Assembly (NCBI RefSeq): GCF_022759505.1
Contig: NZ_CP094289.1
Location: 1,302,001-1,366,000 of the forward strand
DNA from: Georgenia sp. TF02-10
GTDB taxonomy: Bacteria > Actinomycetota > Actinomycetes > Actinomycetales > Actinomycetaceae
Direction of reading: 5' to 3'
DNA: 64,000 bases
In this document: piece by piece, positions 23,149 through 28,361 of the stretch
Position numbering within the stretch: position 1 is the stretch's first letter
Layout: the number at the start of each line of letters is the position of its first letter
Notes under the pieces: generated by a model
What the model saw: the letters and a program-made list of their open reading frames with translations, nothing else
What the model was told of the DNA's origin: nothing
The model's database searches: none
Program-made: the position numbers and the translations under genes

Positions 23149-23180
23149 ACTTATTTGTACGGTGTCTCTGGTGAGTAAGT
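23149..23180. promoter_or_regulatory. imperfect inverted repeat over the regulator start
   Basis: ACTTATT (23149-23155) and AGTAAGT (23174-23180) are inverted copies with one mismatch, spanning the GTG start at 23162. The AT-rich TTATTTGTAC just upstream is a likely -10 region, so the transcript may be almost leaderless. Autoregulation by the encoded HTH protein is plausible. Confidence 0.4.
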
Positions 23181-24058
23181 TGGGTCCGCTGCCCGCCCGC
23201 ACCGACCGGCGGGCGCAGCTGTCCGCCCCGCGCCGTGCCGTGCTCGACCTCCTCGTCGAACGGCAGTCGCTCACCGTCGCCCAGGTGGCCCAGGAGCTGG
23301 GCCAGCACCCGAACACCGTCCGCGAGCACCTCGAGGCGCTCGACCGCGCCGGCCTCGCCCGCCGGGACAGCCTGCCGCCGGCCGGGCGCGGCCGGCCGGC
23401 CTCGGTGTACAGCTACACCCCCGCGGCGTCCTTCTCCAGCCCCGAGTACGCCGTGCTGGCGCGGGTGCTGGTCACCTACCTGGCGCGCGCCTTCCCGGAC
23501 GGCCCGGCGCTGCGCCGCCACGCCCGGGAGGCGGGGCGCTCCTGGGGCCGGGCGATCGTGGAGCGCGACCGGGGCCTCGACGGCGGACACCAGCCCGGGC
23601 GACCCGCCTCCACCGGAGCCGGGTCGTCAGGCGAGGGGACGACCGGCGGCGCGCCCGGCGGTACGCCCAGTCCTCGCCCCGGCAATGGGCGCACCGACGC
23701 GTCGCGCGCCCCCGGCCCCGCCCCGGAGCCGGCGGAGGCGGCACGGCTGCGGCGCGCCGCCGTCGACCGGCTCGGCGCCCTGCTGGACCGCGCCGGATTC
23801 GAGCCGGCCGCGGAGCACGACGACGCCCGCAGCCGTCTGCGGCTGCACCGCTGCCCTGTGCTCGACCTGGCCAAGGACCGGCCAGAGGTAGTGTGCAGCG
23901 CCCACCTCGGCATGGCGCGGGAGATCCTGGCCACCACCGGCATCACTCCCGGGCAGGTCAGCCTGGGCGCCTTCGTCGAGCCCGGCGCGTGTGTCCTGCA
24001 GGTCACGAGCGAGCCGGCCGGCGGCGGGGACGACGCGGTCCGGGTCGGGCCGGCATGA
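23162..24058 (+). CDS. winged-HTH regulator with C-terminal cysteines
   Basis: A 298-residue regulator. The N-terminal winged helix (LSAPRRAVLDLLVERQSLTVAQVAQELGQHPNTVREHLEALDRAG) resembles the ArsR/DeoR-like group. A Gly/Pro/Ser/Thr-rich linker (about 142-192) follows. The C-terminal domain has C231, C245, H248 and C277 (RCPVLDLAKDRPEVVCSAHL, then GACVL). The layout resembles SufR-like regulators that bind an iron-sulfur cluster or metal through such cysteines. Its stop overlaps the next gene (ATGA), so it heads the nitrite reductase unit and probably senses nitric oxide, oxygen or metal to control it; the signal is inference. Confidence 0.8.
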   Translation: MSLVSKLGPLPARTDRRAQLSAPRRAVLDLLVERQSLTVAQVAQELGQHPNTVREHLEALDRAGLARRDSLPPAGRGRPASVYSYTPAASFSSPEYAVLARVLVTYLARAFPDGPALRRHAREAGRSWGRAIVERDRGLDGGHQPGRPASTGAGSSGEGTTGGAPGGTPSPRPGNGRTDASRAPGPAPEPAEAARLRRAAVDRLGALLDRAGFEPAAEHDDARSRLRLHRCPVLDLAKDRPEVVCSAHLGMAREILATTGITPGQVSLGAFVEPGACVLQVTSEPAGGGDDAVRVGPA

Positions 24059-25374
24059 GCAGCGAGCCGCCGGCGGGCGGACCGGTCCTTCAGCGCACCG
24101 GCGCCGAGGCAGGTGCCGGTCCCGCGGACCGACCCGGCGCCCGGCCGGTTGCCGGCCCCGCCGCCCACGGCCCCGCCGCCCACGGGCCCGCGGACCACGC
24201 CGCCGCCACCGGCCCTGCCGCCCGCGGCCACGCCGCCGCCACCGGCCCCACCACGGGCGCGCCCGCCCGGCCGCTGCGCACCCGCACCGGCGTCCGCCTC
24301 GCCCTGCTGCTGCCCGGCGGCGTCGCCCTGCTCCTCGGCCTCGACGCCGGGCTCGGCCTGCTCGGGCTGCCGCAGGTCCTCGGCCCGGCGCTCGGCCTGA
24401 CGCGGCTGCCCGACGTGCACGGCCCGCTCATGGCGCTCGGGTTCGTCGGCACGGTCATCTCCCTCGAGCGTGCCGTCGCCCTCGGCGCCGTCTGGGGCTA
24501 CGCCGCCCCGGCCGTCTCCGGCCTGGCCGTCCTCGCGCTCGTCGGGCCGCTGCCGATCCTGGTCGGCCAGGGCCTGCTCGTCGTCGCCCAGGTCCTCCTC
24601 CTGCTGCTCTACCGCAGCCTCCTCGCCCGGCAGCCCACCGCCGCGGTCACCGTCCAGGTGCTCGGCGCCGTCGCCGCCCTGGGTGCCGCGGTGCTGTGGG
24701 CCGGCGGCGTCCCGGTGCCCTACCTCGCCCCGTGGCTGGCGACCTACCTGGTGCTGACCATCCTCGGCGAGCGGCTCGAGCTCGCCCGGCTCCAGGCGCT
24801 CTCCCCGGCCGCCGCCCGGACCGCCATGGGCCTGGCGGTGGCGCTGCTCGGCGGGGCGGTCCTCACCCTCCTCGCCCCGGCCGCCGGGTTCACCCTCAGC
24901 GGCCTGAGCCTGCTCGCCGTCGCCGGCTGGCTCGCCGTCCGCGACGTCGCCCGCCGCACCGTCACGGCCACCGGCCTGCCCCGGTTCATCGCCGCCTGCC
25001 TGCTCGCCGGCTACGCCTGGCTCGCCGTCGCCGGCGGCATCTGGGCGCTCGCCGGCCCGGTGACCGCCGGGCGCGGGTACGACGCCGCCCTGCACGCCGT
25101 CATGCTCGGCTTCGTCGTCTCGATGGTCATGGCGCACGCCCCGGTCATCCTCCCGGCCGTGCTGCGCCGGCCGCTGCCCTACCGCCCCGTCATGTACGCC
25201 CCCGCCGCCCTGCTCCACCTCGGCCTGCTCTTCCGGGTGGCCGTCGGCGACGCCCGCGACCTCGAGTGGGCCGTGCAGGCCGGCGGTGTGGGCAACGTCC
25301 TCGCCCTGCTCGCCTTCGTCGCCCTCGCCGTCTGGTCGGTGGCGACGGCGCCCCGCCCCGGAGGTCGCGCGTGA
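24055..25374 (+). CDS. NnrS-like multi-pass membrane protein
   Basis: A 439-residue membrane protein. The first 80 residues are an Ala/Pro/Gly/Thr repeat tail (AHGPAAHGPADHAAATGPAARGH). About eleven or twelve hydrophobic segments follow with conserved His positions (DVHGPLMALGFVGTVISLER and LHAVMLGFVVSMVMAHAPVILPAV). This resembles NnrS, a haem- and copper-containing membrane protein associated with nitric oxide/nitrite metabolism, but similarity is from pattern only. It overlaps both neighbours by a few bases, so it is cotranslated with the regulator and the nitrite reductase. It could protect against NO or assemble the metal centres. Confidence 0.65.
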   Translation: MSSEPPAGGPVLQRTGAEAGAGPADRPGARPVAGPAAHGPAAHGPADHAAATGPAARGHAAATGPTTGAPARPLRTRTGVRLALLLPGGVALLLGLDAGLGLLGLPQVLGPALGLTRLPDVHGPLMALGFVGTVISLERAVALGAVWGYAAPAVSGLAVLALVGPLPILVGQGLLVVAQVLLLLLYRSLLARQPTAAVTVQVLGAVAALGAAVLWAGGVPVPYLAPWLATYLVLTILGERLELARLQALSPAAARTAMGLAVALLGGAVLTLLAPAAGFTLSGLSLLAVAGWLAVRDVARRTVTATGLPRFIAACLLAGYAWLAVAGGIWALAGPVTAGRGYDAALHAVMLGFVVSMVMAHAPVILPAVLRRPLPYRPVMYAPAALLHLGLLFRVAVGDARDLEWAVQAGGVGNVLALLAFVALAVWSVATAPRPGGRA

Positions 25375-28361
25375 CCATCCCGCTCGGTCCGCCGGCCCCC
25401 CGCGGCGGTGACGCCCAGGCCCATGCCGGCGAGCCCGCCGCCGGCACGCCGGCGCCCGCGGCCCGGACCGCGGGACCCGCTGCCCGGACCGCCGGGCCCG
25501 CCGTCGACGGCACCCGGACCGCCGGGCCCGCCGTCGACGGCGCCCGCACCGCCGGCCCCGCCGGCGGCGCCGCCCGCCCCGCGGGCGGCCCAGGAGGCCC
25601 GCCGCCCCGCGGCCTGGACCGGCGCACCTGGCACGTGCGCGCCAACGCCGTCGTGGTGGCCTGGTTCCTCGCCGCCTTCGTCGTGGCCGTCGCGCACCGC
25701 TGGGTGCCGGGGTCCACCTGGCTCCTCACCCACCTGATGCTGCTCGGCGCGGTGACCTCCGCGATCCTGATCTGGTCCAGCCACTTCGCCGACACCCTGC
25801 TCGCCCGCCCCGCCCCGGGCGGGCAGCGGTTCATGGTGGCGCGCCTGGCCGCGCACAACGTCGGCGCGGTCGCGGTCATCGCCGGCGTCTCGACCGGGCA
25901 GGACGTGCTCACCACCGCCGGCGGCGCGGCGGTGGCGGCGGTCGGCCTGACCCACGGCGTGGTGATCCTGCGGCAGCGGCGCGGGGCAGTCATGGCCCGC
26001 TTCGGCGCGTTGTCCCTGTACTACGTGGCCGCCGTCGTCGCCCTGGCGATCGGCGCCGGGTTCGGGGTCCGGCTGGCGGGGCCGAGCACCGACGCGACGG
26101 CGCAGGCCGGGACGTACGTCGGGCACGTGGGCACGATGCTGCTGGGCTTCGTCGGCCTGACCGTGCTCGGCACCCTGGTGGTGCTCTGGCCGACCATGCT
26201 GCGCACGAAGATGGTGCCCGGCGCGCCGCTGGCCGCCGGCCGGGCGCTCTGGGTCCTCGGCGGCGCGGTGCTGCTGGTGGCCGCCGGGGCGCTGGTCCGG
26301 GTGGCGCCGGTGGTGCTGGCCGGGACGCTCGGCTACCTGGTCGGCCTGGGTCTGCTGGTCCGGCCGATGGTGACGATCGCCCGGACCAAGCCGCCGCGCT
26401 CCTTCGCCACCCTCTCCGCGGCGGCCGCCGTCGCCTGGCTGGCGCTGTGCGTGCTCACCCTCGGCGTCACGGTGGTCGCCGCGCCCGACTGGCCCACCGC
26501 CGTCGAGCGGCTCGGCGTGCTGCGGGCGCCGTTCGCCGTGGGCTTCGCCGGTCAGGTCCTGCTCGGCGCGCTCAGCTACCTCGCGCCGGTGATGCTCGGC
26601 GGCGGGCCCTCCGTGGTGCGCGCGGTGACCGCGGAGATGGACCGGGCCGCCGTCGCCCGCGTGGTCGCCCTCAACCTGTGCCTGGTGCTGTTCGTGGCCC
26701 CGGTGCCGTCCCTGGTCCGGGTCACGACGTCGCTGCTCGGGCTGGCCGTGCTGACCACTTTCCTCGTGCTGCTCGCCCGGGCGGTCCTGGCCCGCGGGCG
26801 CACGCTGCGCCAGCGGTCCGGGGACGTGCTGACCACGGACATCCCGACCGGGCCGCCGGCGGTGCGCCGCCGGCTGGGCGGGCCCTGGGGGGTGGGTGCG
26901 GTCGCGCTCGCGGTGGTGCTCGGGGTGGCCGGGGACCCGGCCGCCGCGGGGCTGGGGGCCGGCACGGCGGCCGCCGACGTCCCCGCGACCGGGGAGACCA
27001 CCACGGTGGAGGTGGGCGTGTCCGGGATGCGGTTCACCCCGGCGGTCATCGAGGTGCCCGCCGGGAACGAGCTCGTCATCGAGCTGACCAACACCGGCAG
27101 CGACGTCCACGACCTGGTGCTGGAGACCGGGGCGACCAGCGGCCGGCTCAGCGTGGGGGAGTCCGCCACGGTCGACGTCGGGGTGGTCGGCCGGGACCTG
27201 GACGGCTGGTGCTCGGTGGCCGGGCACCGGCAGATGGGGATGACGCTCCAGGTGGTCGCGGTGGGTGCGGCCGGCGGGGCGGCCGACGGCGCGGGTGCGG
27301 CTGACGGTGCGGGTGGCGCAGGCGACGCGGGTGCGGCCGCCGATTACGGCGCGGGTGCGGCCGCCGGCGGTGCGGCCGACGGCGGGGCCCATGCCGGGCA
27401 CGACTCCGGGGGCGGCGACGACGGTGACGGCTCCACGGGTGGCGACGGCACCCGGGCCGACGGCGCGGCCCGGCTGGTGGACCTGCAGGCCGAGCCGGGC
27501 GAGGGCTTCGTCGCCCACGACCCGGTCCTGCCGCCCGCCCCGGCCGCCGAGGTGCACGAGGTGACCCTGACGGTCGGCGAGGTGGCCGCGGAGGTGGCGC
27601 CCGGCGTCGTCCAGGAGCGGTGGGCCTACGACGGCGCCGCACCCGGCCCGACCCTGCGCGGGAAGGTGGGCGACGTCTTCGAGGTCACCCTGGTCAACGA
27701 CGGCAGCATCGGGCACTCCATCGACTTCCACGCCGGCGCGCTGGCCCCGGACGGCCCGATGCGCACCATCGCGCCCGGGGAGACCCTGACCTACCGCTTC
27801 ACCGCCGCCCGCAGCGGGATCTGGCTCTACCACTGCTCGACGATGCCGATGTCGATGCACCTGGCCAACGGCATGTTCGGCGCGGTGATCATCGACCCGC
27901 CGACCCTGGAGCCGGTGGACCGCGAGTACGTGCTCGTCCAGTCCGAGGTCTACCTCGGCGACGTCGGCGGCCCCGCCGACGCGGCCAAGATCGCCGCGGA
28001 GGACCCGGACCTGGTGGTCTTCAACGGCTACGCCAACCAGTACGACCACCAGCGGCTGGCGGCGCGGGCGGGGGAGACCGTCCGGGTCTGGGTGCTGGCC
28101 GCCGGGCCGAGCCGGGGCAGCTCCTTCCACGTGGTGGGCGGGCAGTTCGAGACGGTCTACACCGAGGGCAGGTACCTCCTCGGTGGGCCGGACGGCGCCG
28201 GCGGGGACCCCACGGGCGGCGCGCAGGTGCTGCCGCTGACGGCGGCGCAGGGCGGGTTCGTCGAGCTGACCTTCCCCGAGGCCGGCAGCTACCCCTTCGT
28301 CAGCCACTCCTTCGTCGACGCCGAGCGCGGCGCGCACGGGTTCTTCGCGGTGACCGAGTAA
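25371..28361 (+). CDS. nirK: membrane-cupredoxin-copper nitrite reductase fusion
   Basis: A 996-residue three-part protein predicted to reduce nitrite to NO at the outer membrane face. Residues 1-85 are Ala/Pro/Thr repeats. 90-490 is a multi-helix domain with His-containing helices like the preceding NnrS-like protein. A further hydrophobic segment lies at about 503-530. 543-633 is a cupredoxin with a full type 1 copper set (H580, C614, H619, M622 or M624). 703-996 is a two-domain CuNIR: H782, C822, H830 and M835 for type 1 copper; H787, H821 and H979 for type 2; catalytic D785 and H920. An Ala/Gly/Asp linker (633-700) joins the cupredoxin and CuNIR. Start GTG 25371 follows GGAGG and overlaps the previous stop. 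The fused cupredoxin is probably the built-in electron donor. Confidence 0.88.
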   Translation: MTIPLGPPAPRGGDAQAHAGEPAAGTPAPAARTAGPAARTAGPAVDGTRTAGPAVDGARTAGPAGGAARPAGGPGGPPPRGLDRRTWHVRANAVVVAWFLAAFVVAVAHRWVPGSTWLLTHLMLLGAVTSAILIWSSHFADTLLARPAPGGQRFMVARLAAHNVGAVAVIAGVSTGQDVLTTAGGAAVAAVGLTHGVVILRQRRGAVMARFGALSLYYVAAVVALAIGAGFGVRLAGPSTDATAQAGTYVGHVGTMLLGFVGLTVLGTLVVLWPTMLRTKMVPGAPLAAGRALWVLGGAVLLVAAGALVRVAPVVLAGTLGYLVGLGLLVRPMVTIARTKPPRSFATLSAAAAVAWLALCVLTLGVTVVAAPDWPTAVERLGVLRAPFAVGFAGQVLLGALSYLAPVMLGGGPSVVRAVTAEMDRAAVARVVALNLCLVLFVAPVPSLVRVTTSLLGLAVLTTFLVLLARAVLARGRTLRQRSGDVLTTDIPTGPPAVRRRLGGPWGVGAVALAVVLGVAGDPAAAGLGAGTAAADVPATGETTTVEVGVSGMRFTPAVIEVPAGNELVIELTNTGSDVHDLVLETGATSGRLSVGESATVDVGVVGRDLDGWCSVAGHRQMGMTLQVVAVGAAGGAADGAGAADGAGGAGDAGAAADYGAGAAAGGAADGGAHAGHDSGGGDDGDGSTGGDGTRADGAARLVDLQAEPGEGFVAHDPVLPPAPAAEVHEVTLTVGEVAAEVAPGVVQERWAYDGAAPGPTLRGKVGDVFEVTLVNDGSIGHSIDFHAGALAPDGPMRTIAPGETLTYRFTAARSGIWLYHCSTMPMSMHLANGMFGAVIIDPPTLEPVDREYVLVQSEVYLGDVGGPADAAKIAAEDPDLVVFNGYANQYDHQRLAARAGETVRVWVLAAGPSRGSSFHVVGGQFETVYTEGRYLLGGPDGAGGDPTGGAQVLPLTAAQGGFVELTFPEAGSYPFVSHSFVDAERGAHGFFAVTE
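25500..25559 (+). repeat. 30-bp direct repeat in the nirK 5' coding region
   Basis: Two copies of a 30-bp unit beginning GCCGTCGACGGC (25500-25529 and 25530-25559) differ at a few bases, with weaker ARTAGPA-coding copies upstream from about 25457. They encode a Pro/Ala/Thr-rich cytosolic tail ahead of the first membrane helix. Confidence 0.65.

What the first reader, a model, noticed from the sequence alone, without database searches (positions are those of the whole stretch)
25371..28361. Nitrite reductase fused to its own membrane domain and cupredoxin donor
One 996-residue chain holds a multi-helix NnrS-like membrane domain, a cupredoxin with a complete type 1 copper site (H580, C614, H619, M622/M624) and a two-domain CuNIR with all type 1, type 2 and catalytic residues (H782, D785, H787, H821, C822, H830, M835, H920, H979). 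N- or C-terminal fusions of CuNIR to a cupredoxin or cytochrome are known. A membrane domain plus cupredoxin in one chain suggests a self-contained system passing electrons from the quinone pool to nitrite. How widely this architecture is already described could not be checked.
Basis: partly seen in the sequence, partly recalled or inferred. Interest (0 to 1): 0.7.

Follow-up and report, generated by a model that had tools for sequence, protein, structure and literature searches.

The report
Membrane nitrite reductase with oxidase-like anchor
This gene encodes a copper enzyme that turns nitrite into nitric oxide, fused to its own electron-carrying copper domain and to a membrane part shaped like the core of a respiratory oxidase; the fusion was already known in this bacterial group, but its membrane part was called a domain of unknown function.

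Summary
The 996-residue frame at 25371-28361 (+) is real: 12 membrane helices, a 13th helix, a cupredoxin and a CuNIR. Copper and catalytic residues are conserved in 81 aligned proteins (M835 in 80); M624, not M622, is the cupredoxin's Met ligand. It is no assembly join: the 80 kept loci hold the same fusion. [quoted passage not shown] Added here: (1) modelled alone, that domain has the heme-copper oxidase subunit I fold (Z 31 to cbb3, 29 to NOR), with invariant His in helices 2 and 6 but none conserved in helices 7 and 10; Pfam NnrS does not match. (2) In 61 same-family genomes it occurs in the same 29 as CuNIR (in one only a CuNIR fragment), fused in 13, in separate frames in 14. (3) A second membrane protein lies upstream in 73 of 80 loci. 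NarI and qNOR are in the genome. Best reading: a membrane-bound quinol-to-nitrite module; electron flow through the membrane part is inferred.

The parts
25371..25601 (+). N-terminal low-complexity Pro/Ala/Gly-rich extension (residues 1-77), predicted disordered
   Evidence: pLDDT under 50 over residues 1-74; many homologues match only from about residue 78-87 on
25602..26825 (+). Membrane domain (residues 78-485): 12 helices, heme-copper oxidase subunit I fold; H121 (helix 2), H252 (helix 6), W135, W356, Q395 and R430 invariant
   Evidence: AF2 model pLDDT 90.5, pTM 0.87; Z 31.1 to cbb3 CcoN 8smr_E; residues in 98 of 98 rows
26877..26933 (+). 13th membrane helix (residues 503-521) that carries the copper domains outside; followed by D522, 81 of 81
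   Evidence: DSSP of the model; Lys/Arg counts of the loops alternate, N-terminus inside
26982..27266 (+). Cupredoxin domain (residues 538-632), type 1 copper ligands H580, C614, H619, M624
   Evidence: Pfam Cupredoxin_1; ligands 81 of 81
27273..27455 (+). Flexible Gly/Ala-rich linker (residues 635-695)
   Evidence: pLDDT under 50
27483..28358 (+). Two-domain copper nitrite reductase (residues 705-996): T1Cu H782, C822, H830, M835; T2Cu H787, H821, H979; catalytic D785, H920 (assignment of roles recalled from CuNIR literature)
24055..25374 (+). Upstream multi-helix membrane protein ('MEM'; ORF 23893-25374, likely start ATG 24055); its stop overlaps the GTG start of the fused gene (GTGA), its ATG overlaps the regulator's stop (ATGA)
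   Evidence: homologue in 73 of 80 loci; no convincing Pfam match
23162..24058 (+). Helix-turn-helix regulator with conserved C-terminal C231, C245, H248, C277, perhaps an Fe-S cluster sensor of the SufR kind (inference)
   Evidence: HTH_20 E 5e-9; SufR model E 2e-5 but 24.4 bits against a cut-off of 178.8; each of the four residues in 60 of 63 rows

Best explanation
A membrane-bound nitrite reductase of Actinomycetota. A membrane module with the heme-copper oxidase subunit I fold (12 helices, N-terminus inside) is followed by a 13th helix that places a type 1 copper cupredoxin and a CuNIR on the outer face. Electrons most likely come from the menaquinol pool through the membrane module, perhaps by one b-type heme held by H121 of helix 2 and H252 of helix 6 and perhaps together with the upstream MEM protein, pass to the cupredoxin copper and then to the T1Cu and T2Cu of the CuNIR, where nitrite becomes NO; the separate qNOR then makes N2O. 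Shown by sequence or model: domains, copper ligands, fold, topology, gene order, co-occurrence. Inferred: heme content, quinol oxidation, electron path, a role of MEM, Fe-S control by the regulator.
For: Copper and catalytic residues conserved. Fused form in 80 of 80 kept loci. Membrane domain alone: Foldseek best hit cbb3 CcoN 8smr_E, E 3.1e-5, probability 1.00; VIA-align Z 31.1, 387 residues, rmsd 3.6, 12% identity; NOR 4xyd Z 29.4; the 50 entries shown are oxidases, NORs or supercomplexes that hold an oxidase. One of 24 members touches Pfam COX1 (E 4e-5; 5e-5; under cut-off). H121, W135, H252, W356, Q395, R430 in 98 of 98 rows; both His lie at similar depth from the outer side (7th of 30 and 11th of 35 helix residues). 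Loop Lys/Arg counts alternate. In 61 same-family genomes the membrane domain is in 29, CuNIR strongly in 28 of these and as a fragment in the 29th, a fragmented assembly. MEM is in 22, all within the 29. In 12 of 13 split loci a hydrophobic stretch precedes the cupredoxin. NarI and qNOR are in the same genome.
Against: Conserved His on helices 7 and 10 is missing: any His occurs in helix 7 in 20 and in helix 10 in 26 of 98 rows, in no one column in more than 14; true oxidases have ligands there (recalled), so the membrane part may not be redox-active. No quinol site was identified. Residues were paired with oxidase helices by helix order only, and the one weak COX1 match pairs helices 5-8 with the N-terminal part of that profile instead, so the pairing is not settled. 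Tethered CuNIRs are reported to be about ten times less active than two-domain ones (passage of PMC13324648); PMC4770552 says the N-terminal cupredoxin of known cases is too far from the core for effective transfer and that a mutant lacking its copper site was more active.
Confidence: 0.5

Rival explanations
1. The oxidase-fold membrane part has lost redox function and serves as anchor, docking platform or assembly/copper-loading factor; the cupredoxin is reduced by another membrane donor such as the cytochrome bcc complex.
For: No conserved His on helices 7 and 10; MEM missing in 7 of the 29 genomes that have the membrane part; no Pfam enzyme family matches the membrane part over its cut-off.
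Against: A mere anchor would hardly need His, Trp, Gln and Arg kept in 98 of 98 rows nor co-occur so strictly as a separate gene; a single helix before the cupredoxin would anchor the enzyme.
Confidence: 0.33
2. The membrane part handles the product: it guides NO into the membrane toward qNOR, or binds or detoxifies NO, as a degenerate relative of NO reductase.
For: NOR is the next structural match after cbb3 (Z 29.4 and 27.4); the genome encodes qNOR; the regulator's Cys/His set would suit an NO-sensitive Fe-S cluster (inference).
Against: No conserved His on helix 7 or 10, so no FeB or high-spin heme site of the NOR kind by helix order.
Confidence: 0.12
3. The region is two genes with an internal start, or an assembly join.
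For: In 14 of 29 same-family genomes the parts lie in separate frames.
Against: In the window the frame is uninterrupted, and the 80 kept loci hold the same fusion.
Confidence: 0.02

Closest known systems
Actinobacterial long NirK (Propionibacterium acnes type), BMC Genomics 2016, 17:155, PMC4770552
   Same: ~900 aa, a 400-aa predicted transmembrane extension, then a cupredoxin (CX4HX4M) and NirK; same phylum
   Different: That paper calls the transmembrane part of unknown function and says not all actinobacterial NirK have it; here it is given a fold and, in 14 of 29 same-family genomes, lies in a separate frame beside the cupredoxin-CuNIR
Hyphomicrobium denitrificans three-domain CuNIR (2dv6, 6tfo)
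   Same: N-terminal cupredoxin plus CuNIR; best Foldseek hits of the full model
   Different: No membrane domain (recalled); sequence identity 24-29%
AniA of Neisseria gonorrhoeae (5ue6, 1kbv) and similar CuNIRs
   Same: CuNIR core, Z 32.2, rmsd 2.0, 35% identity over 269 residues
   Different: Outer-membrane bound (PMC4770552), no fused donor or multi-helix domain (recalled)
cbb3 oxidase subunit CcoN and NOR subunit NorB (8smr, 3mk7, 4xyd, 3o0r)
   Same: 12-helix fold over nearly the whole membrane domain
   Different: No conserved His on helices 7 and 10; 9-13% identity; Pfam COX1 cut-off not reached
NnrS (PF05940)
   Same: Multi-helix membrane protein linked to NO metabolism (recalled; a passage of PMC10356946 says nnrS is suggested to help with NO stress)
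   Different: No profile match to this domain

Membership tests
Copper nitrite reductase (NirK) | T1Cu ligands His, Cys, His, Met and T2Cu ligands His, His, His in a two-domain cupredoxin core | tested here: met
   81 of 81 (M835 80 of 81); 17 of 17; core fold Z 32 to 6the and AniA
Copper nitrite reductase (NirK) | Catalytic Asp and His | tested here: met
   D785 and H920, 81 of 81
Copper nitrite reductase (NirK) | NCBIfam TIGR02376 score over its curated cut-off (an annotation threshold, not a defining feature) | tested here: not met
   163.6 bits against 296.3, E 7e-48, model positions 17-310 of 326
Copper nitrite reductase (NirK) | Trimeric assembly and nitrite reduction to NO | not testable with these tools
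   needs purified protein
Three-domain (cupredoxin-tethered) CuNIR | Extra cupredoxin domain with a type 1 copper site in the same chain | tested here: met
   H580, C614, H619, M624 in 81 of 81
Actinobacterial TM-cupredoxin-NirK of PMC4770552 | ~400-aa transmembrane extension + cupredoxin (CX4HX4M) + NirK, about 900 aa, Actinobacteria | tested here: met
   C614-X4-H619-X4-M624 fits CX4HX4M; nearest relatives are Georgenia
Heme-copper oxidase superfamily, subunit I | 12-helix subunit I fold | tested here: met
   Z 31.1, 387 residues, rmsd 3.6 to 8smr_E
Heme-copper oxidase superfamily, subunit I | Canonical His ligands on helices II, VI, VII and X (recalled) | tested here: not met
   Invariant His on helices 2 and 6 only; helices 7 and 10 have none conserved. 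Pairing by helix order, not by superposition
Heme-copper oxidase superfamily, subunit I | Pfam COX1 over its gathering score | tested here: not met
   1 of 24 members matched at all, with 22.7 bits against 34.8
NnrS (PF05940) | Match to the NnrS profile | tested here: not met
   positive control
NnrS (PF05940) | Shared fold with NnrS | not tested

The most novel reading that the evidence does not exclude
A heme-copper oxidase subunit I fold lost its oxygen (or NO) site and became a quinol dehydrogenase that feeds a cupredoxin and a copper nitrite reductase: a single-chain quinol:nitrite oxidoreductase of Actinomycetota. A bold detail that the evidence does not exclude: H121 and H252, on helices 2 and 6, hold one bis-His heme in the pore that is empty in true oxidases, the place related to their low-spin heme by the pseudo-threefold symmetry of the fold (symmetry recalled); the shifted COX1 match of one member fits such a relation but does not show it.
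Probability: 0.35. Interest if true: 0.8.

Novelty: new member of a known kind. Interest (0 to 1): 0.55.

Why it matters
Actinomycetota make up 22% of the partial-denitrifier 'initiator' genomes in one recent survey (a passage of PMC12569097), and how their NirK gets electrons is not stated in the passages read. Giving a fold to the 'domain of unknown function', showing that in one family it goes with CuNIR as a fused or separate frame, and finding the frequent neighbour MEM turn this into a defined set of tests: heme content, quinol activity, and replacement of H121 and H252.

Tried and rejected
NnrS as the identity of the membrane domain: no profile match. PF05940 in the own genome gave no match, but neither did its 14 control genomes, so absence is not shown. 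The membrane domain was sought in plasmids: no match. PDB profile searches with the membrane domain and with MEM gave nothing useful. NCBIfam did not name the qNOR frame; phmmer against the PDB did. The full-length fold search was filled by CuNIR hits, so the membrane domain was modelled alone. Mapping oxidase ligands residue by residue was not possible because no coordinates are available; I used helix order. Phylum- and class-wide searches failed, so the co-occurrence count covers one family only.

Limits of the counts. The 18 loci were picked from 29, partly for short frames, so the 13 split of 18 overstates; the figure for all 29 (13 one frame, 14 separate, 1 broken, 1 undetermined) adds, for the 11 others, only the frame lengths. 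A frame shift in an assembly could mimic a split in single cases; the 13 split loci come from 9 genera. Alignments used parts of what I had: A1 46 and A4 59 of the 80 loci, A3 23 of 80, A2 37 of 73.

Literature. Ten searches of one open library; I read passages of 8 papers and saw the others only as listings. None of what I saw names an oxidase fold for this domain. No search was aimed at the MEM gene or the split arrangement, so I do not claim that these are unpublished. Subscription papers, including the original P. acnes report that PMC4770552 cites, were not seen.

Full report
What is there. The frame 25371-28361 on the + strand is open, starts with GTG and codes for 996 residues. Its GTG overlaps the TGA stop of the upstream frame (GTGA at 25371-25374), and that frame's likely ATG at 24055 overlaps the stop of the regulator frame, so the three genes look translationally coupled. 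The chain has a disordered Pro/Ala-rich start (1-77), 12 membrane helices (to about 485), a 13th helix (503-521), a cupredoxin (538-632), a disordered linker (635-695) and a CuNIR (705-996).

Copper sites. In an alignment of the window protein and the 80 kept homologues, H580, C614, H619, M624, H782, D785, H787, H821, C822, H830, H920 and H979 are identical in 81 of 81 and M835 in 80 of 81; M622 varies (62 Met, 16 Leu, 3 Gln), so it is not the ligand. In 17 same-family proteins not in that set all 13 are identical. The closest solved structures are CuNIRs: 2zoo and AniA by sequence, Hyphomicrobium CuNIR, the Bradyrhizobium core 6the and AniA by fold. The TIGR02376 match covers the domain (E 7e-48) but stays under the curated cut-off.

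Not an artefact, not rare. Being ranked by match to the whole protein, this set favours fused forms. It includes Georgenia, Cellulomonas, Oerskovia, Cryobacterium, Rhodococcus, Mycobacterium, Nocardioides, Brevibacterium, Arthrobacter, Pseudonocardia and Streptomyces, and one record named Sporosarcina (L048). The CuNIR of the window pairs with Georgenia subflava L009 (95/80; 86% identity over 288 columns; 77% over 947 residues of the whole protein).

Already described. A 2016 paper (PMC4770552; passages read; [quoted passage not shown] A 2024 paper (PMC10999283; passages) puts most actinobacterial NirK in its Clade 3; the words transmembrane and cupredoxin were not found in its main text.

The membrane domain. 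Pfam NnrS does not match. The domain modelled alone from 60 sequences (pLDDT 90.5, pTM 0.87) matches heme-copper oxidase subunit I: Foldseek 8smr_E (cbb3 CcoN) E 3.1e-5; VIA-align Z 31.1 over 387 residues at rmsd 3.6 and 12% identity, NOR 4xyd Z 29.4 and 3o0r 27.4, aa3-like oxidases about 24-27; the 50 entries shown are oxidases, NORs or supercomplexes that hold one. The tool notes that helical models without a clear match had a typical best Z of 14, so 31 is far above that. One member (L006) shows a weak Pfam COX1 match, under the cut-off; it pairs its helices 5-8 with the N-terminal part of that profile, not in the order of the fold match. Over 98 rows (81 plus 17 same-family; L109 left out) the invariant residues of the functional kinds listed are H121 in helix 2, W135, H252 in helix 6, W356, Q395 in helix 10 and R430; H195 is kept in 89; H109, invariant in the first 81, is His in none of the 17. 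His in helices 7 and 10 is sporadic (20 and 26 of 98 rows, no column above 14), so ligands that true oxidases have there (recalled) are not conserved. Loop Lys/Arg counts alternate with the cytoplasmic side first, which puts the cupredoxin and CuNIR outside after the 13th helix.

Fused or split. I fetched 18 of the 29 same-family loci that have the membrane domain, partly for their short frames: 13 have membrane domain and cupredoxin-CuNIR in separate, adjacent or overlapping frames (L094-L106, from 9 genera), 4 in one frame (L107, L108, L110, L111), and in one (L109) the membrane genes are in pieces. For the other 11, equal frame lengths mean one frame in 9 (the window's genome among them), unequal ones separate frames in G013; G060 is undetermined. 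Over 29: 13 one frame, 14 separate, 1 broken, 1 undetermined. In 12 of the 13 split loci a hydrophobic stretch (best 19-residue mean 1.74 to 2.90) precedes the cupredoxin in the called frame; in L097 the called frame starts at the cupredoxin. In the CuNIR tree of 98 rows (midpoint root, for drawing only) split and fused forms are mixed, for example L101 split beside L107 fused at 100/98, which suggests more than one fusion or fission; the tree does not say which came first. Some of the NirK without transmembrane domain in PMC4770552 may be this split form; that is inference.

Co-occurrence. In 61 genomes of the family (60 drawn from a larger group, and the window's own) the membrane-domain profile matches in 29. 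The CuNIR profile matches strongly (E 3e-116 or better) in 28 of these 29, and in the 29th (G060, 520 contigs) there is a CuNIR fragment at E 4e-18 on another contig; weaker matches in G002, G040 and G044 (best E 1e-9, 7e-12, 5e-17), genomes without the membrane domain, I take as other multicopper oxidases. MEM is in 22, all among the 29, two of them weak (G028, G057), and is missing in 7. These genomes share ancestry, so the counts are not independent events.

Neighbours. MEM has a homologue in 73 of 80 loci, in 72 directly upstream on the same strand by my distance rule and in one (L005) in the same open frame as the fused gene. Seven lack it; one of these, L016, begins only 122 bases before the match. 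MEM has no convincing Pfam match (single members, best E 0.009) and no clear profile link to the membrane domain. The regulator has homologues in 62 of the 80 loci; among the 73 loci with MEM it is adjacent on the same strand in 41, on the opposite strand in 7, elsewhere in 11 and not found in the rest. Its C231, C245, H248 and C277 are each kept in 60 of 63 rows, some of which may be paralogues.

Pathway in the genome. NarI and a qNOR (best PDB match 3ayf, E 7e-150) are present in the same genome, so nitrate to nitrite to NO to N2O is plausible. NosZ was not sought.

How it works. Shown by sequence or model: enzyme identity, intact copper sites, outside topology, oxidase-type fold, frequent partners. 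Inferred: electrons from menaquinol through the membrane part to the cupredoxin and CuNIR. Recalled and in favour: actinobacterial cytochrome bcc-aa3 chains work without soluble cytochrome c, so a NirK there would profit from a membrane-attached donor. Against: no conserved His on helices 7 and 10; and PMC4770552 reports that a known N-terminal cupredoxin sits too far from the core and that its mutant was more active. I hold the redox reading at about one half, a non-redox anchor or assembly role at one third.

Verdict. A member of a published fusion class, with a new and testable identification of the part whose function was reported as unknown.

Noticed in passing
L005 6393-10694: In Georgenia sp. 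SYP-B2076 the upstream membrane protein and the fused NirK lie in one open frame of 1433 aa; either a further natural fusion or a length change in the repeats between them.
   Followed up: partly
L009 and L012: Georgenia subflava CGMCC 1.12782 carries two copies of the fused gene on different scaffolds, 76% identical over 931 residues; no MEM homologue was found at the second.
   Followed up: partly
L048: A fused gene in a record named Sporosarcina beigongshangi (Bacillota) nests beside Arthrobacter in the CuNIR tree (100/97): horizontal transfer or a contaminating contig.
   Followed up: no
L109 3150-5894: In one same-family genome (G057) the upstream membrane gene and the membrane-domain gene lie in several frames while the CuNIR part is open; decay or sequencing errors.
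   Followed up: no
L110 4251-8002: MEM lies downstream of the fused gene instead of upstream, so the link between the two outlasts a change of gene order.
   Followed up: no
window 25450-25580: Near-identical repeats coding for ARTAGPAVDG-like units in the disordered N-terminal extension of the fused protein.
   Followed up: no
L084 18232-19590 (-): S. meliloti pSymA encodes a 452-aa multi-helix protein near nnrS and norB with no Pfam match; of the outsiders tested it gave the best, still insignificant, single-domain score against the membrane-domain profile.
   Followed up: partly
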